Source: Clytia hemisphaerica (lineage: Eukaryota > Cnidaria > Hydrozoa > Leptothecata > Clytiidae). Taken from it: a stretch of 64,000 nt of DNA. The position numbers were made by a program, and so were the translations under genes. Below, piece by piece: positions 21,533 through 58,100 of this stretch. Location: NCBI GenBank assembly GCA_902728285.1, contig CACVBU010000490.1, forward strand, positions 1 to 64,000, in the 5' to 3' direction. Under the pieces are notes generated by a model that saw nothing but the letters and a program-made list of their open reading frames with translations, did not search any database and had not been told where the DNA came from. Positions within the stretch are counted from its first letter, which is position 1. Every line of letters starts with the position of its first letter.

Positions 21533-22720
21533 AACATCTACCTTTACAATTGTTACTTGCACTTAGGTGGCCGCATCTTTATGATTAGTCCAGGCTATAA
21601 GGCGGTCTCCATCCTTTTTATTTTGTGGATACCGTCTCTCATGTATTTTAAGTGTTCAAATGGTAAATAAATAGTTACTTACTAAAACAACCAAAATTAA
21701 CCAAAAGTGAAAGTAAAAGTAAGTCCAGTCAGCCAGTAAAGTCTGATCTGAAAGTATCTCAAGAAGCCATTAGATTTGATGATAATGACTAATGTGCAAC
21801 AAAATTAATCTTAAAGGTAAAGAAAAACACAAGCAACGATCAAGTCAATTGAAATTTAATTACTCACCCTCTTGAAAATCTTTTGGTTTTACGACAAGAG
21901 AAGGGTCTGTTTAGAGCAGGTATTTGTTTTCGGTAAAAAATTTTAAAAGTGAAAGTACCGACATGCTTTGCGAAGAATCCACAGTCCTCTAATTGTTCTT
22001 CTCCGTGAAGGTTTATGCCAGTCAATCTCCTATGGAATCAAAAATAAGCAAAAGAAAGAGTGCGACTTTTGAGTTCTCAGGAATTTTGCCTCGCCTACCA
22101 TCACTATCATTCTAAATTTGCAAAGGAGACATCGAGACTATTTAGCTGGCTCTTTTATAGACTAGAGTCTACTTTTGGCTGAACTTTGCTTTTTGATAAT
22201 TTTTTATGACGCTGAGTCCAGTGAAGTAGACTAGGAGCATTTGGCGAGGTTGCCATTTTGAAAAAAAAATTAAATAATCCAAAGAACAAAAAAACTACTT
22301 GGAGTTGAAAGATATACTCAAAAATGAGAAACAAACATCAGTAACAGATTTGCAATCCCATATTCTCAAATAAAAACATCGCTTCATACTGTTTTTATTT
22401 TCAAAAAACAACTTAAATCTGGCGGACTGTTTTACAGTCCGCCTAGGCAAAAGGCTATTACCATATACTACCGGGCCACTTAATCGCGCCATCCAGTCTA
22501 TAAAAAAAGCTTTAAGTGGACCCCGGGCTAGCTCTTTTATTCAAACTAACAGGAATACCAAACTAACAGCTAAACTCAAAAAATTGTTGTGGGCAGCAGC
22601 GTTTTTCCAGTTTTTAGTGTTGAAAATGACAAGTTGATCGAATCCTAAATGCTAGAAAAAATCAGGTTTAGAGCTAACGAATTCTGATCCTTCGATGAGT
22701 CTATACATGTTTGAACGGAG
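21533..22720. other. Upstream region of DGKE, no other gene seen
   Basis: AT-rich sequence with no recognisable exon. A GGCGGACTGTTTTACAGTCC palindrome-like segment, continuing GCC, lies at about 22420-22443 (GGACTGT...ACAGTCC). The DGKE promoter and 5' UTR must lie here or in an unseen upstream exon. Confidence 0.4.
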
Positions 22721-25700
22721 ATGGATCAAGTATCGTTTTTCGAATGGCTAGAGCAACCAAGACAAATAGTTTTATTTTCATCGTTTTTTATGATTTTATG
22801 TTTTGCTATAACAAAGATTTCAAAACTGCGAAAACACAGACATCATGATTTCAGAGTTAGAGATCCACGTAAAGGGCACCATTGGGTACATTCAGACTTT
22901 ATTATAAAGCCAACTTTTTGCAACATCTGTGAGACAACAATTGTTCGGGGAGTATTCTGTGACACATGCTGGGTTTGTGTTCATGATGAGTGTGAGGAGG
23001 ATGGAAACAAAAGATTAGCATGTAAAGTTATGAGTTTATCAACAGAAAGAAGGACTATGAAGCATCACTGGGTCAAAGGAAATCTTGCTCTCTGCAGCGC
23101 ATGTGCTGTATGTACCAATCCATGTGGAGTTGAACCAAAACTATGTGATTATCGATGTGTTTGGTGTCAAACCACTGTCCATGAAGGCCAATGTTTTGGA
23201 CAGTTTTTAGATCACTGTACATTTGGTGAAAACAGTAAAATGGTTCTTCCCCCATTTTCTATAACTTTGAAGACAGTTGGGTGGAAAGGTGTGTATACAA
23301 GATTTAAATCATATTGTTTATACAATGTAAAAATCTTTTTGCTGTGTGGAAAGATGTGTAAACTTTTATGAAAATTCTCAAAAATTTGAGATATGAGGGC
23401 ATCTTGGCGATGATGATTTCAAGTGGGTCTGTCAAAATGTCTAATCAGAGTTGCTTTAACTTAAAAATTACAATTTTAAGGTGTATCAATAGTAAAATTA
23501 TTGATAGCTTGATTGATTTTATTGATAACTCTAGAAGCGGCTAGTTCGAAACGCAGGTCACAGGCCACAGGTCGCAGGTCACAGGTCACAGGTCAGTGAT
23601 GACAGGTTGACTCTAATCAATGTCATTGCAGAGGAAAATGTTTGGAAAACACAAAGAATTATCAAAAACATAATTCTCAAGCAATTTCATCCATATAAAA
23701 CCATTTCAAACATCAAAATTTAACCATGTACTTTTATCGATCTTTCGCAGTTTGCGCCGTGTATAACGCAGACCAGAAAATTTAAAACCATATTATACGT
23801 ATGACAGGTATATTACATATTGTAATGTTTGTAATGTTATATGATGGTTACATATAATTAAAACTCATCGTTCTAAAACTACCTTCTCAGAGAACTCACG
23901 AGCTTCTGATTGGTGTAATTTTATATCCAGCCATATTGTTATCATCACATTCGGTATGCTAAATATTTTTGGTGTTTTTCTCTTGTAAGACATGATATTT
24001 TGTGATTATGTCAACATTTTTGTCAAAAATTGTCATTAAGTCATTAAAATAACAATTGGATGATTAATTAGTTTCATCCTTCTAAAACCACTCTCTTAGG
24101 GACCTCACAAGCTTCTGATTGGTGCCGTTTTATATCCATTCACACTATTAACATCACATTCTGTATTATAAATATTTTTCGTGTTTTTGTCTTGTTAGGC
24201 ATCATATTTTATGATTTTGTAATTATTTTTGTAAGTAAGTGTCACTAGGTTGTTATTTTATTCAATTGTCATTTTATAATATCTAAATAACATGTATTAC
24301 TTTTTTGTAATTTAACGCGTTATGAATTGATGTTATGTTATGTATATGTTATGATCTTATTATCTTTTTTCCGGTCTGCACTTTGTTGACCTGTGACCTG
24401 TGACCTGTTGACCTGTGACCTGTGACCTGCGTTTCGAACTAGCCGCTCTAGAAGGGACATCAGTAAAAGTTACAAAGAAAGCAAGCTGTTAAAACAAAGC
24501 ACAAGGGATGCTCGTGGAAGTTAAGAAAAAAGCGAGTTGATAAAACTAAGCATAAGAGACGTTTGTAAAAGTTATGAAGAAAGCGAATTCTGAAAACTTA
24601 AACATAAGAGACGCTTGTGAAAGAAATGTAACGAGTTGACATTTGTTGACCATTCTTGTTATTTTAAAGCTTACAAAGAAAAACAAGTTAAAAACTAAGA
24701 AAGTGAATTAGAAACTCTAGTGAAATTTATGAATAAAACAACAAAGGCTTAGAGAAAATGTTAAAAACGGATGCTACGGTTGTGCCTAAGAGACAGGGGT
24801 ATTCTGTTTCTCAAAAAGTCTGCTATATGTATCATGCAACCGTCATACTCTGTCTTTAGACATTTTGTTTGTAAAAATTTGGACACTTAAAAACACTACA
24901 ATGACTTTTAAGTTGTATCAATAATGTTTTATTGCTTATTTTCTATTGCTTATTTTTCATTGTTATCAATAACTTTCTATCGCTAAATAGCACTGCAATG
25001 ACTTCTTTAACAAAAAAGCTCTTATCGCTATTTCTATCGCTAATTTGGCATTGCTAAATTCTTATCGATAAAAGTCTATCATTAAGCCTATGTGATGTAT
25101 CGATAGGTGTATCGATAGAATCGTTAATTTAACCATATCGATAAAGTGTTGAAAACGAAAGTAATCCTTTTTCTATGGAATGTCACAATTTTTCTTTTCT
25201 TGAAAACTAATAAATAATTACTTCAAACTTGATTACTGCACCTCAAAAAACCATAACATTAGACATAAACTCAAGCTGAAAAACATCAGCAAAGGTGCAA
25301 CAATAATCCTTATTCAGCTGATGGTAAATTGTTTTCCTGGGAATAGAATCGCACGACAAAATGACGTCATATTTCAAATCAAATAAAATTGATCTTAATC
25401 CTTGATTTATAGCAACAAAATACTTGGTTTTACTACAGTAATATAATGTTTTTGCTGGTTCTTGTGAATTTAGAAACACCTTTAAAAGTTAAAAAGAAAG
25501 CAAGTTGATAAATGTGAACTTAAAAAACACTCTTCAAAGTTAGGAAGAAAGCAAGTTAGTAAAAGTAAATCTAGAAACACTCTTGTTTGAAAGTAACAGA
25601 GAAAGCAAGTACTTAGAAACACTCTTCAAAGTTACGGATAAAGCAAGCCAAAACATTGAAAGTTATGGAGAAAGCAAGTTGATAAAAAGAGTGAACCTAG

Positions 25701-41735: not shown

Positions 41736-44700
41736 TCAAGCATTAGTTGCTACCTCTCCAGTGGAGTGAGCAGGTGATGGTGACCCTTGGTTCATCTTCT
41801 CCGCCAACTTCAGTCGACGGTAATTCTCGTAATGAATGGCTTTGGTGACTTCGATCATGTCCTCCATGTGTGTTCTGTAAACATCAAGAAAATAAAATTT
41901 AGTTGAAGAAAAAGCGGGAAGAACTCAGCTTGAACGAAGAGCCTTAGAACAAAGATAGATACAACAATCATAACGTCCTAATAACGTTCATAAGGTGGAC
42001 GCTGAAACGCTGTTATGCAGCAGCAATAATCAGCGGTCAAAACAAAGCTTATTATCTGAGACGGAAAATGACTCAACACGACAAATTAGCTTTTCAATAT
42101 TTTTGCTGAGTTTGGCTAAATACTAAGGGCTTAAAAGCGGGATGAGGTGGAGTTTTTACAAGCTATTATTTAACGCTTGGTTCTAAAGAACGCGTCATTT
42201 TTATCACTTCAAATTACCAATAATTAAAGTATCTTATAAAAACTCAATCTCATCTGGTAAAAGCCTCTTTTTCCATACTTCTTTGAGACAGAAATCCGTC
42301 TGACACAGAAGAATTGTGAACATTGAATTTATTAAAACTCAGTAGACGAACAACCTTTAAACGTTCATACAAACTTGGAAGTTAGCACTAGGTTAACGTT
42401 GTTTTGACGTTAAGAGTAAGGTTGGGCAGTACTGTTATTTGTACAAAAATGTACAAAAATACGTGATTACCTTATTGGAACTAATTTTCGCGGGAATAAA
42501 TTTTAGCGTTTTTCGCGGTTTTTTGGAATTAGTTCCAATAAGGTATCTGAAAAATCTCGGAACAAGATATTGAAAAACGTGGTGAGAATAATTCCATGAA
42601 ATAAATAAATAAATATAAATAAAAAAGTTCTTACTTAATGAGTAGATCTCTCAGGAGTGGAAATTCGCAATGTGCACGGTTTTCAACTGAAAAAGAGAAA
42701 TGCTTGAAATTAACATTAGTTTAAAATTGTAGACTAAAATATTAGGTTTTAGCTCTCTTTTAAGAAAATCAAAATATCAAAAAATGTCTTGAATACGTTT
42801 CGTTCGAATTTCCTTAGAAAAATTGCGTCAACGTATCTCTATATCCTGGAAACGATCATCATTGAATTCTTGCTGGAAAACATGAAGAATCGGAATTCAA
42901 AAAATACTAGAAGTTCCATAAAAACCAAAGTTTTTGACGAGTAAATACAATTGATATAATATATAAATTAAGCTTCGAGCTCACCTTCGATGATTCCCCA
43001 TTTCGTTTTGCGACCGAGAACATTTTTACTTCCAACACTGACGTATCGATCACTTCCCACAACTGCAAATGGGATTTGCTCCTGGAATGATTGAATAAAT
43101 ATAAATTTCATTTTGAGTAAGAACTCTATGTTTCGGGGGGGGGAGTACTAGGGTAACGAGCTGACGGGTATGTCAGCGGGACTAAAAAGAAGGAAAAAAG
43201 GAAAATTTTGTGAATTTTACGACCCTTATTTGGAACAAATTAACCAGATTTTTCTGGGGGCAAAATTTTCTTATTTTTCCTACCCTTAGTGGGACTGTCA
43301 GGTTCCAAAAAGGTACCATTAAGGGCGGCACATTCCCGTACCCTTCACTTGTCTAGGGATCCCTTCCCCTCCAGCTCTATGTTCCTTTGGAGCTCCCACA
43401 TAATATGGATGATTAAAGAAGTCGGACAAGTAAAATATTCTTTTTTTATCTATTTAAAAAATTGTTCAAAATGGCCCTGCAAGTAAAGCAACATAGTTTA
43501 ACAACATATAGTTAAAGTCACAAAAATATATAAATCCCCAGTTTCTTTAGGAATATGCAACACTTGAATGCTTTCTAAGATCGAGTCACTTTTACGACAG
43601 CTGATTGGTTGAAAATGAAGTAATAGGTAGGGAAAATAGAAGAGTTACATCATTTCGGAGAGTGAAGCGGATGAATTTAAAATCTTTTACCTTGACTTTG
43701 TTGTTGAATTTGATCTCCTCTTCTGTCAGGTTAGAGTGCATGATGGGATAGATGTTCAAGTTGTTCAATTGGACGTCTTCGCGAATCTGTAGTAAAGTAA
43801 GATAATGTTATTCAAAAGAGCTAAAAATCGACACCTTAATAGAAACATCCAGTATCAAGTAAAAGGACTTATAAATAAATGATGGATGGATTTTGGTAGT
43901 TTTTGAAAACAATAGATTAAAAAAAAGTTGGTAGTCTATTATATTTGTAAGTCGTTGGTTTGAAGTTCCAATGAAATTTGGCAAGTCCTCTCTAAAAGGA
44001 TTTGTAGAGCTACTAGGATCTATTTGGACACTGAGAAACAACATATACCCTTTTCTTGAAAGCTTCTCGTTCTTCCAGTGTCAAAGTATCAGCTTTTGCA
44101 ATAACTGGGATGACGTTGACACATTTGTCCAAATGTTTCATAACAAGGATATCCAATGGCTTCAATCTAAAAAAAGAATTCAAGGGGGGGGGTTACTGAA
44201 GCATTATTGAAAACATAGCTTTCTAAACAATGCTGAAGGTTATGATGTCAATGAAAAAACACCTCTGGAGTATTAATAAACAATCTGATTGTTTTAAAAA
44301 GCTCGAAATCTGTGGCAATCACCTAGAATTCCACAATGCATTTTGCTCTAAGGTTTTGCAATGTCAATAGAGTCCAGGAATTTACTTTACTGGCAGTTCA
44401 GCTAAAGCCTAGACCTGATAACTACTTTTATTCGCCTTTGACTGCCATTCATGTATTCATTTATAAAGGTGGAAATCTCAGAGTAAAAATGAAAAGATTC
44501 ATGCAAGGTAAGAATAAAGAAAAATGATACCCACCTGTGTCCAGTAGGTGCGATAAAATAGAGACAACAATGAACTCTGTTATCAGGGATTTTCATACGT
44601 CTGTTGATACTGATCTCTTCGTTCAAATAAATATCGTATTGGCGATTGATGTATCCAAGCACAGGATCCCAGCTAGAAAACAATAACCATTAAAATATCT

Positions 44701-47700
44701 GTTTACCTCATGATAGATAAAAAGCCATTTTCTCATTCAAAAACATAAATACTGCTTACTATTTTAAGTTATGCGACACAATGTGAGCTAAGAAAATTAA
44801 TGAGGACCATAATTGTATGCTTTCTATAGCATGGTCAAATAAAATAGATATTTTGCAGAACCTGAAGTAAAGTCAAAGGTTAGAGGACTGCAGAGCTAAA
44901 AATTGAACTAGAAGCTGAAAATGGTAGTCTGGGTAGTCAAATATTTTCTATACCAATTTTTATTATTGATTTGATCACCGAATCCAGGTGTATCTGTCAC
45001 TGTTAACTTCAGGTTGACGCCCTTTTCCTCCAACACTGTAAAAATGTTATTCAATGTTTTTTTAAACCATGCTTAGTCAGAAAGTTTCATATAGGAATAA
45101 TTGGTTATGTATCTCTTAAAGAAAATGAGTAAATTTTACTATTGTATTAGGCGAGACCAATTTAATTTGTTGTTAAAATCAAAAAAATAATAATATCGAA
45201 TTTCCACTACAATATATTTTACACACTAGTTATTTGCAAGAATCAAATTAGATTAAAACTGAAAATTAATTCAAGAAATTGAAAATTTTAGAAAATCATG
45301 CATTCCATCCATACACTGATCTTCATCGAAGATAAAAAAAGTGAATTTTTGAATCTGGATATATTTTTTGGAAAACATTTTCGGTACTTTACCAACCCTG
45401 ATAAATGAAAAATTTATTCTTATTTTTCCGACCGACCAACCCATATTTTGCTAACGATCTGCCCGTAGAACAACAAATTAAATTGGTCTTGCCTTATCAA
45501 AATAAAAATCGATTTTGAAAGAAAACATTGCTGTGTATTTTAAAAGGAAAATAAGTAAATTGTATATTTCTAACCTGTTCTAATAGAAAAATAACTTTTG
45601 ACAGAAATCATTAATGTGTGTTTAAAACTTTAGGAAAATAGTCAATTAGGAATATTTGAAAGAAAAAGTTGAAGAAAGATGCAAAGTATAAAAGTCAAGA
45701 TAATAATAATTCTTACCATGTGTAACACTCTTGATTTCTACAGTTTTGGGGATTTCAGAGTTTTCAGGTGTACAACTTGTTCGAGAAGCTCTTGTTTTGA
45801 ATAGTGTGTTGATGAGGGTAGATTTACCAAGACCAGAGCAACCTATAAGAAAAGAGAATTAGCTTCATAAAATCAAACTAAAAGTAAAAATATTCATCTA
45901 TTGGCTGTCAGAGAAGATGGGAGTGAGGGAGTCTGTTCACTTTTCTATTTCAAATGCTGGGGTGGAGAGTTCCTGAACTCTTATTACTTGGATCAGATTG
46001 CCAAACAAAGTTCCTCAATGTCCCAGTAAGCGAAAACCAGGGATCAAATCCACAACACTGAAAAATGCTCTAATCAGCTACCTGACCATTAAAATAAATG
46101 GTATTAAATCAAAAACTATTCTAAAATCTTGATTTAGGCAGAATTTGTAGCCTTGAAATAATATACCTTAAAGGAAGAAATTTTGGCGGAAAGAAAATTT
46201 GGCGGATTTGGCGGATTTGACTGAAATCCGCCAAATTAAGTTCCCGTCAAAATTTCTTTTTTCTGCCATCCGCCAAATTAAATTCCCGCCAAATTAAACA
46301 TTTTGAAAATATGATCTCTTTTAAGGTGTTTTTGCTGTTTTTTCGCTGTTTTGACGCCATCTTAAGGTTAAATTTTTAAGCGACTGCCAAATTAAATTCC
46401 CCCCAAATTAAATTTTTTCGTCCATCCGCCAAATTAAATTCCCTCTGAAAAAACTTTTTTGGCCATCCGCCAAATTAAATTCCTGCCAAAATTTCTTCCT
46501 TTAAGGTAATCCTTATGAAAAGACCTAAGGTACAATTTTAAGATAAATTTATTAAGAAAAGTTTCAATGCAACAACAAGGAGCAACCCTAGCAAAGAGAG
46601 AGAACTACTATAAAATAATCTACACATTATCATACTTTTATCAAGCAGAGAGCTAAAATAGATCATCAAACTTACCAACAACCATAACATTGAACTCAAA
46701 ACCACGTTTCAAAGAATTTAACCGAATTTGTTCTTGAATTGAATCAAAGCCAACATAGCCATCAACTTGAGTTTTCAGTTTTCCTCCCCATTGAGTGGTC
46801 ATTGACATTGTTTCAAGCATTATATTTAAAAAGTTTGTATATGAAAGCATTCCTGAAAATGAAATTATGAAAGCATATTAGAGATAAAAAGTTGTGACAA
46901 CCTGTTGAAAATATCCATTCTAAAGAGGCAAGATATATTTCTTTAAATATTTGTGATGGTTTAAATTCTGTGATATCTGTTGACTTTTCTGTCACCCCTT
47001 TTCATAAATCTCAGTTTCTTTTAAGTGCAATGGCTTTGTGTTCTGTTCTGTTAAAATATTGAATAAAAGAACAGTAGATAATGGAAAATGTATCAATTTA
47101 AATTTGACAAATTAAAGAATGAAAAATATATCATACCTTTCTCTGCTCTGGCTTCAGCTTTTTTGCAAACGCTTTCTTTTTCTGCTTCGCTAAAATTTGG
47201 GCCCATAAGTTGGACTGCTAGAGTTATAATTGTTGCAACATCAACTTTGCCTGTTTCTTCCACATCTGCAAACTTGTAAACTTTCAACAAAGCTGAAATG
47301 AATGAACATAACGAGAATTCTTAAATTGTTGATAATAGGAAAAATGCAACACAAAATTACAAAATCATCAAAGAGGGAAAAAAACTTCACACAAATAAAT
47401 ATGACCCCCCAAGCAATTTGGAGTACATTATAAATGAGACCGGTCTTGGTGCGGACAGATCGATAATATGTGCGGCAAAAAAGCGGCGAAAAGATTACCG
47501 TGCAGTAAAATGATACCTTTGTATCTACCAGAAATTATCCGAAAATCTTTCCTAGAAATTCCATTCAAACGCACTTGATCGGTCACTAAAGAGCACCATT
47601 AGAATGAGTGCGGTATTCAGTGCGGTCATGGTGCGGACATTTTGTTTTTATTGTTTTGCTTGTTTGAACTCGAGGCTGAAATTCTTACGGCAATCGAAAG

Positions 47701-50700
47701 AAATATAAACAAACGGCTGGGACCGCACCATCGTCCGCTTTCGTTGGCACTTTGTCCGCACGGACCATACGGTACTGTGTGGTCTTCTGGCCGCTTTTTC
47801 AGGCTTTTAGTCGCACAATTAACCAGTCCAAAAGCGGCAGAAGCATGACCGCACCAATACCGGTCTCATTTTTAATGTACTCCAAATCGCTTGGGGGGTC
47901 ACAAATTAGCCAAAATATCTTCAAGAGTCTTGTCTAATTTTCTTGACCTTCAAGACAGAAACAGAAATATCTCTTCCATACTTTAATAAGCAAAATCTTT
48001 GAAAACTGAAAAATATTCTCTCTCAGTGCACATTTTTTTTCTTACCAGCTTTTTTAACATAGTCACTTACAGAAAAATAGAGTGAACATGACTAATTCAC
48101 AAAATGAAACAAATATTATACCTTCAGCTTGGGCGTTGGTCAAAATATTCTAAGAAGAAAAGAAAATAATTACATAAACTAAACATAAACCATTTTACAA
48201 CAGCCAGGCAGAGGAGTAACTAAAATAATCCCATCATCTTGGGGAACCTGCCATTTAGCCCAGGATAGGTGAACTAGCCCTAATATATATAGGCAAGTTA
48301 GCTGATAATGAAGAAAAAAATGTTTTTAGATCAAGTACCTTTATGACAATGATTTTTACATGTAATTCTTTTTTTAATATGGGTACATATTATCTGAATA
48401 TGGCAGATGGAAAGCCAAAGGGTCTATTTTGTTCTAAGACTTGGCTCCCGGCCAGGAATTCCTTTTTTTCCAAAGAGTTTCAGGCTCAAAGTTCCTTATA
48501 GAGTTCCTTATTTACTTTATTTAGTTCCTTATTTTGAAGTTTATAACTTCTGTATAGGTAGAACTTTTCTCTTTTTGACACATTGCATACCGTTTCAGAA
48601 AAATTTCACCATCTCTTTATTTAGGTTATTGTAAATGTTTGTAAGTTCAAGTTTAACTCTTACTGGTCCTTAACTTGATTTCTTATTCTCAGCCTGAGCA
48701 GTTCCTTAACAATGCCTTATTTTTTGGACCAATTTCAGGCTTGAGTTCCTTACTAACGTGCTCCTTATAAAAAAAATGTAATATCTGTCTATTTTAAAAA
48801 TTAAAATAATTAATAATATAATAATATAATAATTAAAAAAAATGTAATATCTGACTATTTTGGCAAGAAGAGAAGATTTTTAGAATAGAACAGACAGTTT
48901 AGACCTAGACTCCTATTAAGATTACAGGATTTCAGGCCTGGCTATGAATAATAACTTAAGCGTGCCAAAATAGCACTCCATAAAAAATATGTCATAGATT
49001 ATGGCGTGTTATTTTTGTACGTTCTTGCATATTTTAGAAGTGCTATTTTAGCACTCGCTCGGGTGAGTTAAGGCATGTCCCAAATATATTTTGCGTGACG
49101 CGCACCGCTTCCCATTATTCCTTAACTCTCATATATAGCTCAAAACAATCGTATCAATGAGAAGATTTTGAAAAGTGCTGGGTCAAAAATTTACAATAAG
49201 TCAATCTGAAGATATTGGTCAAAAACTGATTTTGACGTTATAAAATACATCGAAAAAACACGTCAAAAAGACAATTTAATTGATGTCATTATTGAAAAAA
49301 GGCAATAATTCTGATTAACTTACTACAATCAAAGCAAAATTTTGACTGGAGATGTTGAGTATTTATTTTGAAATATTTCGTGAAAAAAAATTGGAAATTC
49401 ATGATGACGTCAGCATTTTTTGACGTTTTTTAAATTTTTTCGACAACAAATGACGTCATTGAAATATTCTGAAATTTTTTTAACAAATATTTCAGAATCG
49501 TTAATTTACAACTCCAGTCAAAATTTGGTGTTGATTGCATTAATAGAATTGAAGTTATCGCCGTTTATTTGAATCTTACTCATGACGTGTTTTTTCGATG
49601 TATTTTATAACGTCAAAATCAGTTTTTGACTGATATCTTCAGATTGACTTAATTTAAATTTTTGACCCAGCACTTTTCAAAATCCTCTCGTTGATACGAT
49701 TGTTTTGAGCTACATATGAGAGTTAAGGAATAATGGGAAGCGGTGGGCGGCGTCATGCAAAATATATTTGGGACATGCCTTAACTCTGCCGTCCAAAGCA
49801 AAAACCAGGTAAGTCCAAAATTTCGAAAAATTATTTTTTGCTAAAAATTGACTCTATAGCACCCAAGTAACCTATTTTTGAAAAAAAAAATTCAAAATAT
49901 TTTTCCTACCGGGAAAAACGGCCATGTCATTTTCAGGTGTGTCCATCGAAAAAAGGAAATTCCCAAGCAAAGGAAGGTAAGTCCACCTATTACACAGAAA
50001 TGGACATACCTTCTTTTTAAAGAAAATAAATTATTTCTCTGAGATGGACTTACCTCTTTTATGGACTTACCTTAGTCTAATTATGGACTTACCTTCTTTT
50101 AAAAAATGCTACTGCACTGTCAATTTTCCAGATACGAACGTTTAGCATTTCGAATGTGTCAATCGAATGTTCGAATTCATTCTAGAATTCTAAAGTTTGT
50201 TTCGAAATTTCCCTCACTCTGAACTCGTCTTGTTAATTTAAACATGGACTTTTTTTGAAAAAATACTATATAACCACGACATTCATTTCTTATGTCAAAA
50301 GCAGGTAAGTCCACAATCTCTCAATAAATCGATAATAAATAGCTGAGTAAAAGAAATTGACTAGCCTTTTACTTTCTACAATTACTTTCTTTCCAAAAAT
50401 ACAAAACTTGAGCTAGTTAATAGAGAAAAGGTACCAAATTTCGGCTTGCACGCTTGATGATTCTTGTCGCCTGAACAAACCTATGCTCAGACAGGGTGTC
50501 TACGGATTTTTTTCTCAGGATTTTCAAGGTTTTCAAGTTTTTTTGGTCCTTTTTAAGTGGTTTTTCAAGGTTTTTTGGCTAACGATTTTGCACTTTTCAA
50601 GGTTTTTTTTATACTCAGTTGACATATCTCTCTACAGGGTTTTTTTTCAGAGTGGTACTATGCGAAAGTAAAATAGAAGACGACAAATAAAATTTATTGG

Positions 50701-52839
50701 CTTTTAGCAACCGGCGAATTATTTCCACAGTTAAATTCCTATCTCCCTCTCGAGAACGATATATACCACATTTTTACTCCAGCTACCTAGTCTTTCAACT
50801 GTTGAAATAAAGAATTAGAAGTAAAAACCAAATGTTTACAGTGACCTAGGAGGTGCAACCATGGTTTGCGTTAACAAGAGAAAATTTTAATTTTGACTCT
50901 TTCAAATGGCTAAAAAACGTCCTGTTTTTGATTGCTTTTGCCAAAAGTGTTGTCTTAAGTAAATTATTTTCGATGCTACAATCTTTTAAAAAATCTTAGA
51001 GTTTGATTATTATTTTTAATCGAACTTTAATCGTTCAATGGAGTTCGATTGGTTCGATTGTTCGATTGGTTCGACAAATTCGATTGATCGGGCCTGGTAT
51101 ATTTAAGGTATTTTTCCTATGAAAAGACCTGCTACATACATTTCTCAGGTGATCAAATTAAGATTACATTGTAACAGATCACCATTTCCAGCTGTACAGC
51201 TGTACCCCAGACCCGATCAATCAAACTTGTCGAACCAATCGAACTAATCGAACTCCATCGAACGATTAAAATTCGATTAAAAAAATTAATCGAACTGTAA
51301 GATTTTTAAAAGATTGTGAGTGTTCGATTAAGTTTGACCAATGGGTTTCGGTTCGATCAGTTCGATAAACCAATTTTGTTTGACAAGTTTGTGCTGCTCC
51401 ACCACCGTATATTAGTTTCTTTTCAAAGCCAAATTCGGAATGTAAATCGGGAAATTACTTCCGATAACGGATTACACACTTTTCCTGTATTGTTTTAGCG
51501 CCAGAGGCGGTTTGTTGGGGCGTAGTATTCCGCCACTCGGCCGCGCACGAAATCGCAACAGAGGGGCTACGGACTTTATTTTGGATAGACAAATATCCGG
51601 CTACAATAAACGTTAAGCTGTTTAGTCCGGGAATTGTTGAAATGGCAATCACGTGCCAGGCAGTCAGGCACATCCTGGCAAATGAACGGGGTGAGCATTT
51701 GCATGGGGTATTCGTCACCCAGTGTAAATGAGATAGGACGTCTCAGGCTAAAAACGTGAAAATGAATAAAAATGAACTTCAAACTGAAAATGGGAAAAAA
51801 GGAAGAAAACTGGGGACTTTATTTTTTCGTTAAAAGTTTCTTCAATCTTCGAAGACAAAATTGACCCATGGAAAAAAAATTTCATCTATGCAGATTTTTG
51901 AAATGAAGCAAAATATTTCCAACCTGGTGTGGTTCAATTGCGTGGGGTATTCAGTGCTATTACATCACTTTTGTTTTCGACCCCTTGCATTTGCCACCAA
52001 TCGCAAGTGAAAAATACCCCGTTCATTTGCCAGGATGTGCCTGACCGCCAGGATAAAGTTTTTGCAAGCGAGGGAAGATGTGAGGATTTAATATCATCGA
52101 ACTGCTCTGACCAAACTAATGGAACTGCTATTGCTTCAAAAATTGTGAGTGTTCGATTATCGAACTTTAATCGTTCGATGGAGTTTGATTAGTTCGATTG
52201 TTTGATTGGTTTGACAAGTCTGATTGATCGGGTCTGGTGTACCGTGAATTCGGGTAACATGCATCAGTGGAGGCAAACATGCATAGCCCTCAAATGAATG
52301 ACCCGTCTGGTCATTAAAATACAAAGTTAGATAAAAATAAAAATGGTAGAGTAGAGCTGCAAGCGGAGCTGCGTAGTTCATTTGTTTTGAAATTTTACTG
52401 CTTTGATTGGTGAATCATTTGATGGCTATGCAATTTTCCCTCTACTGATGCAAGTTAACCGACTTCACGGTATGCCTTTCATTCCCAGCTCTTGTTTTTC
52501 TTGTCCATGAAAGGTTAGCTACAGAATAAAAATTTACCTTCGATAGATTTGGTGCTGCCATTTTTAGTGATTTGAATAACCAGTTTACACAAGATAAAGC
52601 TGTTATTTATTTGATTTTAAGCTAAAGTAAGAATCGAGTCAATCAAAAAATTATCACCTTATAAATAAAATCCCAGACAGCAAGCCAAGACAAAAAATTA
52701 TCAGCTTTTTGTCTGGTTTGACTGAGAAGTTTTTCAGTCTTGTCAGTCTTGAGAAATAAAAAAAGAAACCTTTACAAAAATAAATAAAGGAAAAATTGCA
52801 ATAGGAACTGTTCATTTCTATCCCTACCTGAGGAGACAT
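41736..52839 (-). CDS. Septin (SEPT3/9/12 group) with an N-terminal EF-hand-like pair
   Basis: Septins are GTP-binding proteins that form filaments at the cell cortex. Eleven exons join with consistent phase: 52839-52828, 48149-48122, 47292-47137, 46852-46676, 45842-45717, 45035-44954, 44672-44535, 44166-44049, 43786-43691, 43081-42985 and the pair 42686-42635 / 41874-41736 (the last two counted together make twelve segments), 406 codons, stop TGA. Residues 117-406 form a septin: [11 protein letters not shown]-loop GCSGLGKST (125-133), DTPGFGD (181-187), [26 protein letters not shown] (263-266), [18 protein letters not shown] and [15 protein letters not shown] and the lack of a C-terminal coiled coil place it in the SEPT3/9/12 group. 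Residues about 7-82 look like half a calmodulin ([18 protein letters not shown]..., [10 protein letters not shown]); loop 1 is [12 protein letters not shown] and loop 2 lacks calcium ligands. The start exon (MSPQ, donor CAG|GTAGGG) is inferred. Confidence 0.93.
42468..42545. mobile_element. Tiny inverted-repeat element in a septin intron
   Basis: TACCTTATTGGAACTAATTT and AATTAGTTCCAATAAGGTA are near-perfect mirrors around a CGCG-rich centre (TTTTCGCGGG, TTTTTCGCGG). At 78 bp it can form a single hairpin. TA lies at both ends. Confidence 0.85.
43140..43380. repeat. Dispersed repeat, copy 3 (CCTACCCTTAGTGGGACT family), septin intron
   Basis: It contains GACGGGTATGTCAGCGGGAC, TACCCTTAGTGGGACTGTCA, AAAGGTACCATTAAGGGCGG and CCCGTACCCTTCACTTGTCT, in the same order as 19125-19290 and 4860-5070. 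Confidence 0.7.
45147..45496. mobile_element. Inverted-repeat element (MITE), AGGCGAGACC family, copy 2, septin intron
   Basis: TTAGGCGAGACCAATTTAAT at the left is mirrored by ATTAAATTGGTCTTGCCTTA at the right, with GTTGTT / AACAAC inside. The internal CCGACCGACCAACCC matches copy 1 at 40210-40589. Confidence 0.88.
45905..46095 (-). mobile_element. tRNA-derived SINE-like repeat, septin intron
   Basis: On the minus strand the head reads GGTCAGGTAGCTGATTAGAG (A-box-like) and then GTGGATTTGATCCCTGG (B-box-like). The body ends with AGACTCCCTCACTCCCATC, shared with the repeat at 15262-15520. It is in the same orientation as the septin gene. Confidence 0.6.
46164..46508. mobile_element. Inverted-repeat element (MITE), CCTTAAAGGAAGAA family, copy 1, septin intron
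   Basis: TACCTTAAAGGAAGAAATTT plus TGGCGG is mirrored by CCAAAATTTCTTCCTTTAAG plus GTA, flanked by TA. The interior repeats TTTGGCGGA and TCCGCCAAATTAAATTCC many times in both orientations, so most of the 345 bp can fold. Confidence 0.88.
47402..47901. mobile_element. Inverted-repeat element with about 55-bp arms, septin intron
   Basis: TGACCCCCCAAGCAATTTGG and the following GAGTACATTATAAATGAGAC are mirrored at the right by GTCTCATTTTTAATGTACTC and CAAATCGCTTGGGGGGTCA. Interior rich in GTGCGGAC / GTCCGCAC and AAGCGGC words. The two 60-68-codon frames (47642-47937) carry no transposase motif. Confidence 0.9.
49065..49786. mobile_element. Foldback element, about 720 bp, septin intron 1
   Basis: GAGTTAAGGCATGTCCCAAA at the left and TTTGGGACATGCCTTAACTC at the right are exact mirrors. 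The mirror continues inward for over 200 bp (AAGTGCTGGGTCAAAAATTT against AAATTTTTGACCCAGCACTT; CATCGAAAAAACACGTCA against TGACGTGTTTTTTCGATG). The centre near 49420 is TGACGTCA-rich. No coding capacity. Confidence 0.92.
49787..50990. other. Septin intron 1, low-complexity repeats
   Basis: The words AGGTAAGTCCA and ATGGACTTACCTTC recur at 49810-50110 and 50305 (both orientations around a centre near 50000), suggesting a degenerate palindrome. No exon seen. 50490-50660 is rich in TTTTCAAGGTTTT. Confidence 0.45.
50998..51110 (+). repeat. Copy of the TCGATTGGTTCGA arm
   Basis: It carries ATCGAACTTTAATCGTTCAA, TTCGATTGTTCGATTGGTTC and GATTGATCGGGCCTGGTAT. It matches 52150-52243 in direct orientation and the arm at 51195-51300 in mirror orientation. 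Confidence 0.8.
51195..52245. mobile_element. Large nested foldback, septin intron 1
   Basis: GACCCGATCAATCAAACTTG (51211) mirrors CAAGTCTGATTGATCGGGTC (52217). CAGTCAGGCACATCCTGGCA (51661) mirrors TGCCAGGATGTGCCTGACCG (52029). The common centre is near 51840. The outer arms consist of repeated ATCGAACT words. Open frames of up to 87 codons on both strands come from the palindrome and have no domain. Confidence 0.8.
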
Positions 52840-54775: not shown

Positions 54776-55165
54776 TACCGTGACTTTCATAATATAGTTC
54801 ATAAGGGATACCATATATAATGCGTGCTACGTGTTGAAAATGCTGTAAATTTAACTGAATTAAAGGGTAGGTAGAAACACCATGTAGGATGAATTGACAT
54901 AGTGACAGCACAGCGAACAGGATAAGATATAGGGCAGGATCTATGAACAGGACCTTATTTTTCATTTTTTAAAGCTTAGTCTCTTTTTGTGTAGTGACTG
55001 AACTACTACTACCGTGTAGGGGGTGCGAATAAAACCTTCTTGGTAAAATGAGAGGACCTTGACATGAAAATCAGGCTTCTTTCCTCCTTTGCTTTTCATT
55101 GGATGAGGCACTCAACCAACTTTCACAGCCATGAAAAAACTCGAACGAGCTGTATGCTCTCTCCC

Positions 55166-58100
55166 TTATGTAACAACAGATGCTTTACAATCAACTTTAG
55201 TGGGGTCGTTAGCAAGGAATATGATATTCAATTCTTGAAGCCAAGCGAGGCATTCGTCTTCAGATTTGAAGGCTAATTGGGTTGTTATATGTGCGACACT
55301 TAAACTTGGTCGATACCTATCAACCACGGTTGAAAAAGAAAGAAAAAAAAACATGAATATACAGAGAAAAGGTAGATTGAGCTTTGTAAAGGACTGAAGT
55401 TACAGAGGACAGATTTAGTCTCAAGGTCTATCCCGAGGGTTAAAACTTACCTGCGCATCGGTGAAAAAATTCCCAGAGTCCCGAGAATTTATCCCAGCGA
55501 AAAATAGTAAACTTTTTGGGGCAAATTGTTTTGTAAAGATATTTGAGATTCTCATATATTTAAGTCGAAGTTTCTCCAAATCCAATCACATTCTTACCGA
55601 TACTGTCGCCCACTGGCTAAAAAATCCTCAATGGGGAGCTTAGATTTTTTAATAAGAAAATTTTAACACTTAAAAGTGCCTTAAAAAGAAATACAGGATG
55701 TGTTAACAGTACTACTATACAGAGGAGGTAATTATAAAGAAATGTATGTGCTTAGATGGGGTTGACTTTATATACTAAAAGGATAATGGTTGAAGAGATA
55801 AGTTTAAACTGCTCATTAGATGTGAGGAAAGGCGACTGATTTCTAGGATAGGCTGGCTGGTTTCAGAAAGAAGGGGAGGGGAGGGGTGTTTATATACTTA
55901 CGCCTTCACTAGCCGTTTGAGCTTCTTTACGTTCCCTAGCTATAAAAAGGTCAATGAGAGATCCACCCATTTTTGGTGCTTGTAAATAAAACTTGAAAAA
56001 TGAACGATAATTATCTAGTGCCAATGCAGAGCGCACCGACAGGGCGTGTTGAACAAGCGCGTCTTTCTTCAGATCTTTGGTCAGTGAGGCAAGACAAGAA
56101 TTTAAGTCCAAAGTGCTTTTTGTGTAAATATAGTAGAGAATACTGTAGGCCGTAAACTCGGCTACTTGACCGTTGATTCCTTTGCTGTAAAGCCTACGTA
56201 AACACGTTTGGCATTGATTGAATTCCTCTCGATCACCCTGGAAAAAGAGAGAGACAAAATGAAAGATTACCAAGTTGTGGTTATTATAAAAGGATGGGTC
56301 ATATTAAATGGCTTTAAAAATATTTAAAAAGGATGGGATACAATTATGAAGAGGGGAATGTCTGCCTAAAACTTACTTTTTCGAGAGCAATTCTAGCGTG
56401 GGTTTCATATACTGTAACTGTGAATTCGTTTTCAATTCCTTGGACGGTCAAATCTTGACGGATGGACTTCATCTGTTCGCAAGCGAAATGGTAGTCGTTC
56501 TTCTTCTTCCATTGCGTTTCGACGTGTTCCAATGACTTCTTCAAAATGTTGACGGGACGGACTGTCGATGGATCAGGCGCCTGCGAAGGAAAAATGGGGA
56601 AATCATAGAACCGAGAAATCAACTGTAATGTATTTGAAACCATACATGACTAGGAATCAAAGATGGCTCTTCCAGTTAACTATTAGTTTCCCCTAAGTGT
56701 AATGCAAGCAAGCACCTACTGAAAACCCTTCCGTAAGTTTTGCATGCATGTTAAAATTTATGTAATAACTTAACAATGTTTCCTTTACAGAACATTGTAA
56801 AAAAATCTAACGTAAAATGGAAAATGTCATGTTACAGTAAAAGGGGTTAAAACATATTACCCACCGAAGTTAAACGTAAATATGGTTTTGTCAAATCTTG
56901 GCAGTATCCGTTGATGTGAAAGTTCATGTCGACATCTTCATCCATTGGCTGCAAAAGAAAACAAGATGTATTGTTATAGAGTTGAATGGTCCGTACGATT
57001 GGTAGAAAATTGGTATGACAGGTTCCTAGTTAACCATTGAGTTAATAAAATATTTGCAAATAATAAATTTAGGAGTGAAACTTAGCACCGGTTGTTGATG
57101 TAATGGAGACTCCCCAAAAAGCCATTTACGCCATAAAGTTTGCCAAAGTTTCAGTATTGAAATCTTTAGGAAACTAGTAGAGAAAAACTTACTGATTCTC
57201 CTTTCGGTATTAAATTGGACGAATTGAAGCTCGAAGACTTCTTGAAGTCTTTCTGAAATCGTGCAGCTCGATCTTGTTTCTTCTGTGTAACCTCTGTATC
57301 GTTTTCAATCTTAAATTGTTTCATGTTAGGTGTACTTTTGCTTTTGGCCATGATGTTGTTATTGGAATTTTTGATCATTTTCTTACCGAGTCTGTTCTTC
57401 ATTTTCTTACTGAATGCAGGTCGAACGTTCTCCAGACTGTCGTTAGAGGAGCCACCACTACTTGAAGAGCGCCTATGGGACGGTCTACGAGTAGGTGTAT
57501 TACTCCTCGAACGACTTCTGGAGCGCGACCGACTGCCAGTGTTACGATATGAACTTCTTGAGCTACGTTCGTATCCTTTTGGTGGAGTTCTAAACAAAAA
57601 CGATTAAGGGAGTCAAATAGAATGTCCAAAACCATACATGACTTCTAAAAGAAACATTTTCAAGTGTTATAGAGTACATTTAGTAAGATGGATTAAAGAA
57701 AACAATTCCTAGGTTTTTCAGCTCAGTTTAGAAATCTTACTTGAAAAGAGCCTTTAACTGCCAGTTGATAGTCCATGCACTACCATCACTGATAACTTGA
57801 TTTACAAAGGTTTTCAATTTCTCTTCCATTTTATCCTTAATTCGTTCACTACCACACTGCTCAAATGATTCTCTGACCCATGTTTTCATTGCTTCAGGCC
57901 ATTCCTTCTTTTTATTGTTCTCGCTGAAAAGAATTATTAAATTTTTAAAATAATAAAGACCTGTAAAGACAGCGGTATTGACAATAATTCAAATGAAAAT
58001 CTATTTAAATCTATTGTTAACATGAAAAGCAGTACGATCAACTTAGCAATTTGAAGGGTTTTTTTACCTTTAAGGTCATTTACATAAGTATGCACACTCT

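What the first reader, a model, noticed from the sequence alone, without database searches (positions are those of the whole stretch)
46676..48149. A septin with an in-frame EF-hand-like half-calmodulin at its N-terminus
Seen: the segments at 48149-48122, 47292-47137 and 46852-46676 join in phase and encode about 80 residues that align in order with one calmodulin lobe: an entering helix ([17 protein letters not shown]), loop [12 protein letters not shown] with Gly at position 6 and hydrophobic at 8, a linking helix, a second loop (ARAEKGMLSYTN) and a final helix [10 protein letters not shown]. The septin G domain follows without interruption. Known: septins carry variable N-termini; I know of none with an EF-hand pair. 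Inference: loop 1 lacks Glu at position 12 and loop 2 lacks ligands, so it probably does not bind calcium strongly and may act as a light-chain-like docking module.
Basis: partly seen in the sequence, partly recalled or inferred. Interest (0 to 1): 0.85.

Follow-up and report, generated by a model that had tools for sequence, protein, structure and literature searches.

The report
Septin fused to half a calmodulin
In what looks like a hydrozoan (jellyfish relative) genome, the gene for one cytoskeletal septin begins with a calmodulin-like helix pair that has lost most calcium-binding residues, a combination I found in no paper searched; it may give this filament protein a new docking or pairing surface.

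Summary
The three segments join in frame at AG/GT sites and run into an intact septin gene (410 aa, 12 exons with a newly proposed, provisional ATG exon at 52561-52538). The N-terminal 78 residues match EF-hand pairs: all 33 PDB hits are EF-hand proteins, best E 5.6e-8, though Pfam scores stay below curated cut-offs. New, independent support comes from introns. One lies exactly where 15 of 20 fetched (selected) calmodulin-like genes of this genome have it (codon 12, phase 1); the next has the phase of their codon-60 intron, about 2 codons off. The septin part shares its VVG|xSG intron with 3 of 4 other septin loci. So this reads as a calmodulin-type N-lobe fused to the only SEPT3/9-type septin found. 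Both loops lack key ligands, so calcium binding is unlikely; I favour a calcium-independent docking or pairing module at the centre of the septin octamer (inference). No transcript, second species or whole-domain fold was available, and folds of single exons were weak or untrustworthy. Five literature searches listed no EF-hand septin. New variant of a known kind; interest 0.6.

The parts
52538..52561 (-). Proposed first coding exon, MAAPNLSK, donor in phase 0 (provisional)
   Evidence: Best donor score of 116 ATG-to-phase-0-donor candidates, purine at -3 and G at +4, in-frame stop 16 codons upstream; no transcript
48122..48149 (-). Exon 2 (28 nt): start of EF-hand 1 entering helix, [10 protein letters not shown]
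   Evidence: AG/GT flanks, phase 1 end; intron falls at calmodulin codon 12, phase 1
47137..47292 (-). Exon 3 (156 nt): EF-hand 1 loop ([12 protein letters not shown]), linker, EF-hand 2 entering helix
   Evidence: within the phmmer matches; codon preferences of its first 40 codons in the top 0.5% of stop-free intronic windows, last part only top 7% (training set is mostly calmodulin-like exons, so it leans towards EF-hands)
46676..46852 (-). Exon 4 (177 nt): EF-hand 2 loop end and exiting helix, linker of about 20 residues, septin alpha0 region up to VMVVG
   Evidence: One open frame through both parts; septin part matches SEPT3/9/12
45717..45842 (-). Exon 5: G1 motif GCSGLGKS
   Evidence: intron before it (VVG|xSG, phase 1) shared with 3 of 4 other septin loci
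44954..45035 (-). Exon 6: G3 motif DTPGFG
44535..44672 (-). Exon 7: septin G domain
44049..44166 (-). Exon 8: G4 motif AKAD
43691..43786 (-). Exon 9: septin G domain
42985..43081 (-). Exon 10: septin G domain
42635..42686 (-). Exon 11: septin G domain, near its end
41736..41874 (-). Exon 12: C-terminal end and stop TGA; short tail without room for a coiled coil
   Evidence: Pfam Septin ends at residue 385 of 402

Best explanation
A real single gene encodes a SEPT3/9-type (Group 1a) septin whose N-terminal extension is an EF-hand pair descended from the N-lobe of a calmodulin-like gene, captured together with that gene's exon layout (phase 0, then codon 12 phase 1, then about codon 60 phase 1). 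[Gene fusion: about 0.85.] Both loops have lost calcium ligands, so the pair most likely folds as a calcium-independent four-helix module, like the non-binding lobes of myosin light chains (recalled). [quoted passage not shown] the two EF-hand modules would leave from that same place, about 20 residues before alpha0. I propose that they pair with each other, or grip an amphipathic helix of a partner, and so give the octamer centre an extra contact. [Docking or pairing given fusion: about 0.45, inferred only.]
For: In-frame exons and one exon holding both domains. EF-hand matches, E 5.6e-8, 33 of 33 hits EF-hand proteins; 0 of 2000 shuffles reach the calmodulin score. Intron at calmodulin codon 12 phase 1 exactly, seen in 15 of 20 fetched calmodulin-like loci of the same genome; 12 of the 20 show both this acceptor and a donor after base 1 of codon 60 (leaving out L067, whose apparent donor lies in a C-lobe exon). 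Genome's centrin genes are split elsewhere. Septin half: Pfam E 3.5e-110, ten best of 44 PDB sequences all SEPT3/9/12 (386.7-369.2 bits, next SEPT7 332.2). Only gene of this group found: one exon of each other locus matches SEPT1/SEPT2 (L016, L017), SEPT7 (L018) or SEPT6/8/11 (L020) best. Central-dimer position of Group 1a and lack of coiled coil: PMC8801916, passages seen. Loop residues read directly.
Against: No transcript or protein evidence and no second species. Pfam cut-offs for EF-hand not reached. Second intron is about 2 codons off by alignment, and the first, phase-0 intron is one codon off and on a provisional exon. The 20 loci were picked from the 154 matches because their hits looked exon-shaped; by my count of its (cut-short) list, 17 rows run from residue 8-13 to 57-67, while 22 rows run from residue 7 or before to 71 or beyond and so lack the codon-12 and codon-60 introns, the canonical calmodulin on C308 among them. 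AlphaFold on the second exon piece gave one long helix and Foldseek on the first gave no significant hit. Nothing tests docking or pairing.
Confidence: 0.62

Rival explanations
1. The EF-hand-like exons are only in one optional isoform (or are an abandoned upstream piece); the main septin starts at a Met inside exon 46852-46676 from a promoter in the preceding intron, as a short-N-terminus SEPT3-like protein.
For: The frame in that exon is open upstream of the acceptor to 46877 and has Met codons near its start; a start at 52561 requires a 4.4-kb first intron and is provisional.
Against: The EF-hand exons are in phase, stop-free, with good splice sites; the EF-hand alignment runs across the junction of two exons; codon preferences of most of 47292-47137 are coding-like.
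Confidence: 0.2
2. The module is a working calcium switch: loop 1 ([12 protein letters not shown]) still binds calcium or magnesium weakly, and this changes septin assembly, as calcium-sensing EF-hands are said to do in large Rab GTPases.
For: Loop 1 keeps Asp 1, Gly 6, a hydrophobic residue at 8 and Asp 9. EF-hand plus GTPase fusions described as calcium sensors exist (PMC8303950, title and start of abstract seen).
Against: Position 12 is Thr and 3 is Glu; loop 2 (ARAEKGMLSYTN) has no acidic residue at 1, 3, 5 or 12.
Confidence: 0.12
3. The N-terminus is an unrelated helical extension and the EF-hand likeness is coincidence.
For: Pfam cut-offs not met, and HAUS4 also scores 0.073; best single-stretch E only 0.004; E 0.013 with the genome's own calmodulin-like profile.
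Against: Two-domain E 5.6e-8, only EF-hand proteins among 33 hits, shuffles fail, and calmodulin-type intron position and phase.
Confidence: 0.07

Closest known systems
SEPT3/SEPT9/SEPT12 group septins (Group 1a)
   Same: G domain, G1/G3/G4 motifs, alpha0 region, no room for a C-terminal coiled coil; best PDB matches
   Different: N-terminal extension is an EF-hand pair; SEPT9's long extension binds microtubules and crosslinks actin (PMC8801916, passage). The word EF-hand occurs 0 times in the three septin papers searched by term
Calmodulin and calmodulin-like proteins, N-lobe
   Same: Helix-loop-helix pair pattern, ungapped from LT to the loop-1 Asp; codon-12 phase-1 intron
   Different: One lobe only, loops without most calcium ligands, covalently joined to a septin
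Centrin-2
   Same: Best PDB score, E 5.6e-8
   Different: This genome's centrin genes are split at other places
Large Rab GTPases (Rab44, RASEF/Rab45, CRACR2A-L)
   Same: EF-hand domain N-terminal to a P-loop GTPase (abstract starts)
   Different: Rab, not septin, GTPase; coiled coil between; described as calcium sensors

Membership tests
Septin, SEPT3 group (Group 1a) | Septin G domain (PF00735) over curated cut-off | tested here: met
   368.1 bits, cut-off 26.2, residues 111-385
Septin, SEPT3 group (Group 1a) | G1, G3, G4 motifs intact | tested here: met
   [18 protein letters not shown] read
Septin, SEPT3 group (Group 1a) | Closest to SEPT3/9/12 among septins | tested here: met
   Ten best of 44 PDB sequences; no tree was built
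Septin, SEPT3 group (Group 1a) | Assembly into hetero-octamers at the centre | not testable with these tools
   Needs biochemistry
EF-hand superfamily, calmodulin type | Score above a curated EF-hand profile cut-off | tested here: not met
   EF-hand_9 19.0 of 37 bits, EF-hand_7 17.2 of 30
EF-hand superfamily, calmodulin type | Significant similarity to known EF-hand pairs | tested here: met
   PDB E 5.6e-8, 33 of 33 hits EF-hand proteins; control 0 hits; 0 of 2000 shuffles
EF-hand superfamily, calmodulin type | Calcium ligands at loop positions 1, 3, 5, 12 (positions recalled) | tested here: not met
   Loop 1 D-E-T-T, loop 2 A-A-K-N at those positions
EF-hand superfamily, calmodulin type | Two helix-loop-helix units in the fold | tested here: inconclusive
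   Exon piece 47290-47138 alone: helices 8-13, 18-29, 35-50, mean pLDDT 68, no significant Foldseek hit; the other piece folded as one helix, also over the stretch expected as septin strand beta-1, so that model is not trusted
Calmodulin-like gene lineage | Introns at codon 12 phase 1 and codon 60 phase 1 | tested here: met
   First exact; second same phase and about 2 codons downstream, so only approximate; comparison loci, a selected set
Large Rab GTPases | Rab-type GTPase domain | tested here: not met
   GTPase is a septin

The most novel reading that the evidence does not exclude
A calmodulin-like gene gave its first exons, introns in place, to the Group 1a septin of a cnidarian lineage. 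The loops then lost calcium binding and the two copies in each octamer now pair at the central NC interface, making a 'split, calcium-free calmodulin' that replaces the missing coiled coil and sets filament stability or bundling.
Probability: 0.25. Interest if true: 0.78.

Novelty: new variant of a known kind. Interest (0 to 1): 0.6.

Why it matters
Septin N-terminal extensions vary widely in length (PMC8801916, passage); a folded domain of calmodulin descent at the octamer centre would be a new way to tune septin filaments, and a clear case of domain fusion in which both parents' introns are still visible. It also gives a simple animal group (hydrozoans) in which the module's loss or swap could be followed. 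If it is in all cnidarians, it bears on how SEPT9-type extensions arose.

Tried and rejected
Instead the calmodulin-like profile was run over all 1641 window ORFs of 25 aa or more: at E up to 10 it listed six ORFs, two of them the gene's own EF-hand exons (from 47320 and 46877), and none on the minus strand upstream of 48150. The listed rows of the calmodulin search show none on this contig (list cut short). Centrin as parent: best PDB hit, but its genes here are split elsewhere. HAUS4 as an alternative family: E 0.073 only. 18S rRNA search for the organism failed (machine error) and was not repeated; the mitochondrial contig was read instead. Literature, listings only: searches (1 paper; 5 papers) required septin and EF-hand; others (15 of 67 papers listed; 12 of 73 listed) required three of four terms, so not always both; (exact phrases) found 0; 17 and 34 were on septin evolution and cnidarian septins. 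None listed an EF-hand septin; only an open-access library was searched. No eukaryotic genome collection was on hand, so orthologues in other hydrozoans could not be sought. A count that I corrected: one search prints 13 donors after codon 60; one (L067) lies in a C-lobe exon and is left out.
Full report
What was given. The finding claims that three segments at 48149-46676 (minus strand) encode an EF-hand pair joined in frame to a septin. I checked the sequence, the gene around it, the rest of the genome and the literature.

The gene. Eleven exons on the minus strand from 48149 to 41736 have AG before and GT after (the last ends in a stop) and give 402 residues without a break. Just before 48149 the frame is closed by TAG, so the start lies upstream. 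Between the end of the upstream gene (about 55165 by eye; a SAC3/GANP-family gene on the same strand, PF03399 E 2.2e-9) and 48150 there are 116 ATG-to-phase-0-donor candidates of at most 240 nt; the best, by a donor score trained on this gene's own ten donors, is 52561-52538, encoding MAAPNLSK, with good bases around the ATG and an in-frame stop 16 codons upstream. With it the protein has 410 residues. This exon is provisional.

The septin half. Pfam Septin gives 368.1 bits (E 3.5e-110). Against the PDB the ten best of 44 sequences (E up to 1e-20) are all SEPT3, SEPT9 or SEPT12 (386.7-369.2 bits), then SEPT7 at 332.2. The motifs [14 protein letters not shown] and AKAD are present, so GTP binding is expected. 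A Pfam search of the whole genome found septin exons on C340 (this gene), C753, C797, C941 and C599, and one weak hit on C250 that looks like another P-loop GTPase. One exon from each of the other four loci matches Septin-1/Septin-2 best for L016 and L017, Septin-7 for L018 and Septin-11/6/8 for L020. So the window gene is the only SEPT3-type septin found here. None of the others matches the EF-hand part: the 121-residue N-terminus hits only itself and, from residue 88 or later, the alpha0 exons of the four other loci at E 0.1-0.5 (6 of 6 candidates scored).

The EF-hand half. The 78 residues after the first exon hit 33 PDB sequences at E up to 10, all of them centrins, calmodulins, myosin light chains (one row labelled myosin head) or another EF-hand protein; the best is centrin-2 at 5.6e-8 for the whole sequence, with best single-stretch values near 0.004. 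A hand-made scramble hits nothing. The local score against calmodulin's N-lobe is 57; the best of 2000 shuffles is 44. A profile made from 11 calmodulin-like N-lobes of this genome plus calmodulin gives 13.1 bits, E 0.013, just outside HMMER's inclusion line but ahead of 2000 shuffles (best 9.1); among 1641 window ORFs the best, 6.8 bits, is the frame of the EF-hand exon itself (from 47320), the next 6.7, and the frame of the following exon (from 46877) is listed at E 8.4. Against the reading, no Pfam EF-hand model reaches its cut-off (EF-hand_9 19.0 of 37, EF-hand_7 17.2 of 30). I take it as a true but diverged EF-hand pair.

Introns as an independent witness. Anchored without gaps on LT...D of the first helix, the window's second intron falls in the codon equal to calmodulin codon 12, phase 1. 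I fetched 20 calmodulin-like loci of the genome, chosen from the 154 matches because their hits looked exon-shaped. In 15 of 20 an AG acceptor sits exactly before base 2 of codon 12; in 12 of 20 there is also a GT donor after base 1 of codon 60 (L067 left out because its apparent donor lies in a C-lobe exon). The window's third intron is also phase 1 and lies at loop-2 Gly 6, about two codons after the codon-60 place by alignment. The canonical calmodulin of this genome (C308) lacks both introns but has an acceptor directly before codon 2, in phase 0 (its ATG exon was not sought); the abalone calmodulin genes too have a first exon with only the start codon (PMC6171432, passages seen). The provisional first exon of the septin likewise ends in phase 0, two residues before LT where calmodulin has three. 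Centrin genes on C129 and C162 break at other places: their first exon match runs through the codon-12 place. By my own count, two introns placed at random over 234 sites would hit one of these places exactly and the other within two codons in the same phase about 2 times in 10,000; this was worked out after seeing the match and on a selected set, so it is a guide only. In the list (cut short), 17 rows run from residue 8-13 to 57-67, as expected for the split layout, and 22 run from residue 7 or before to 71 or beyond and so lack both introns.

The septin half carries its own witness: the intron VVG|xSG in phase 1 is shared with L017, L018 and L019, while L016 reads on through it; in L016, L017 and L018 a likely acceptor (by eye) lies 4 to 9 codons before YVGF, where the window's exon runs on into the EF-hand part. 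So exon 46852-46676 begins at a calmodulin-type boundary and ends at a septin-type boundary: a chimeric exon.

Other checks. Codon preferences of the first 40 codons of the exon 47292-47137 lie in the top 0.5% of stop-free 30-codon intronic windows, the last part only in the top 7%; the training set is 2834 codons, of which 282 are septin and the rest calmodulin-like, so it leans towards EF-hand composition. AlphaFold on that exon alone gives helices 8-13, 18-29 and 35-50 at mean pLDDT 68, which fits the exit helix of loop 1 and the entry helix of loop 2, but Foldseek finds nothing significant (13 matches at E up to 10, one of them an EF-hand protein, AtCBL2, at E 9.3). AlphaFold on the next exon gives one helix of 54 residues, also over the stretch expected as septin strand beta-1, so I do not trust it.

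Organism. A 14,551-base contig (C900) carries COX1 and, by my reading of the translations, COB, ND4, ND1, ND4L, ND3, ND6, ND5, ND2, COX3, ATP6 and COX2 in that order, with TGA read as Trp. I recall this as the order of hydrozoan linear mitochondrial DNA; no call names the species.

How it may work. Loop 1 has D, E, T and T at ligand positions 1, 3, 5 and 12; loop 2 has A, A, K and N. Calcium binding is unlikely. In octamers Group 1a septins form the central dimer through the NC interface and lack the coiled coil that emerges there in other septins (PMC8801916, passages). The EF-hand pair is tied about 20 residues before alpha0 (its place recalled from septin structures), the helix of that interface, so each octamer should carry two modules side by side at its centre. 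Pairing of the two, or a shared grip on a partner helix, is my preferred inference. Similar architecture exists in large Rab GTPases with N-terminal EF-hands (abstract starts only).

Novelty. The word EF-hand occurs 0 times in the main text of three septin papers searched by term (PMC11238149; PMC6323724; PMC8801916). Full-text searches (listings only, two of them capped and with looser term rules) listed no such protein. Only open-access papers are held, and automatic annotation of related genomes may already show the architecture, so this is a claim about what I searched and no more.

Noticed in passing
47402-47901: A MITE-like element with 56-nt, 93% complementary inverted arms sits in the intron between exons 48149-48122 and 47292-47137.
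   Followed up: partly
about 55165-58000, minus strand: Upstream neighbour is a SAC3/GANP-family gene; LENG8-like by recall.
   Followed up: partly
L028-L032 (G000:C827:1177832-1189760): Five matches of equal score to calmodulin at a spacing of about 2.88 kb: a tandem array of a calmodulin-like gene.
   Followed up: no
L049-L064: Many calmodulin-like genes of the genome share codon-12 and codon-60 introns although its canonical calmodulin (C308) lacks them.
   Followed up: partly
   Followed up: partly
22715-23371, plus strand: 218-aa open frame with a C1-like zinc-binding pattern, possibly part of a diacylglycerol kinase (by eye).
   Followed up: no
G000:C129 and C162: Two centrin-2-like gene copies with near-equal scores, either duplicates or unmerged haplotypes.
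   Followed up: no
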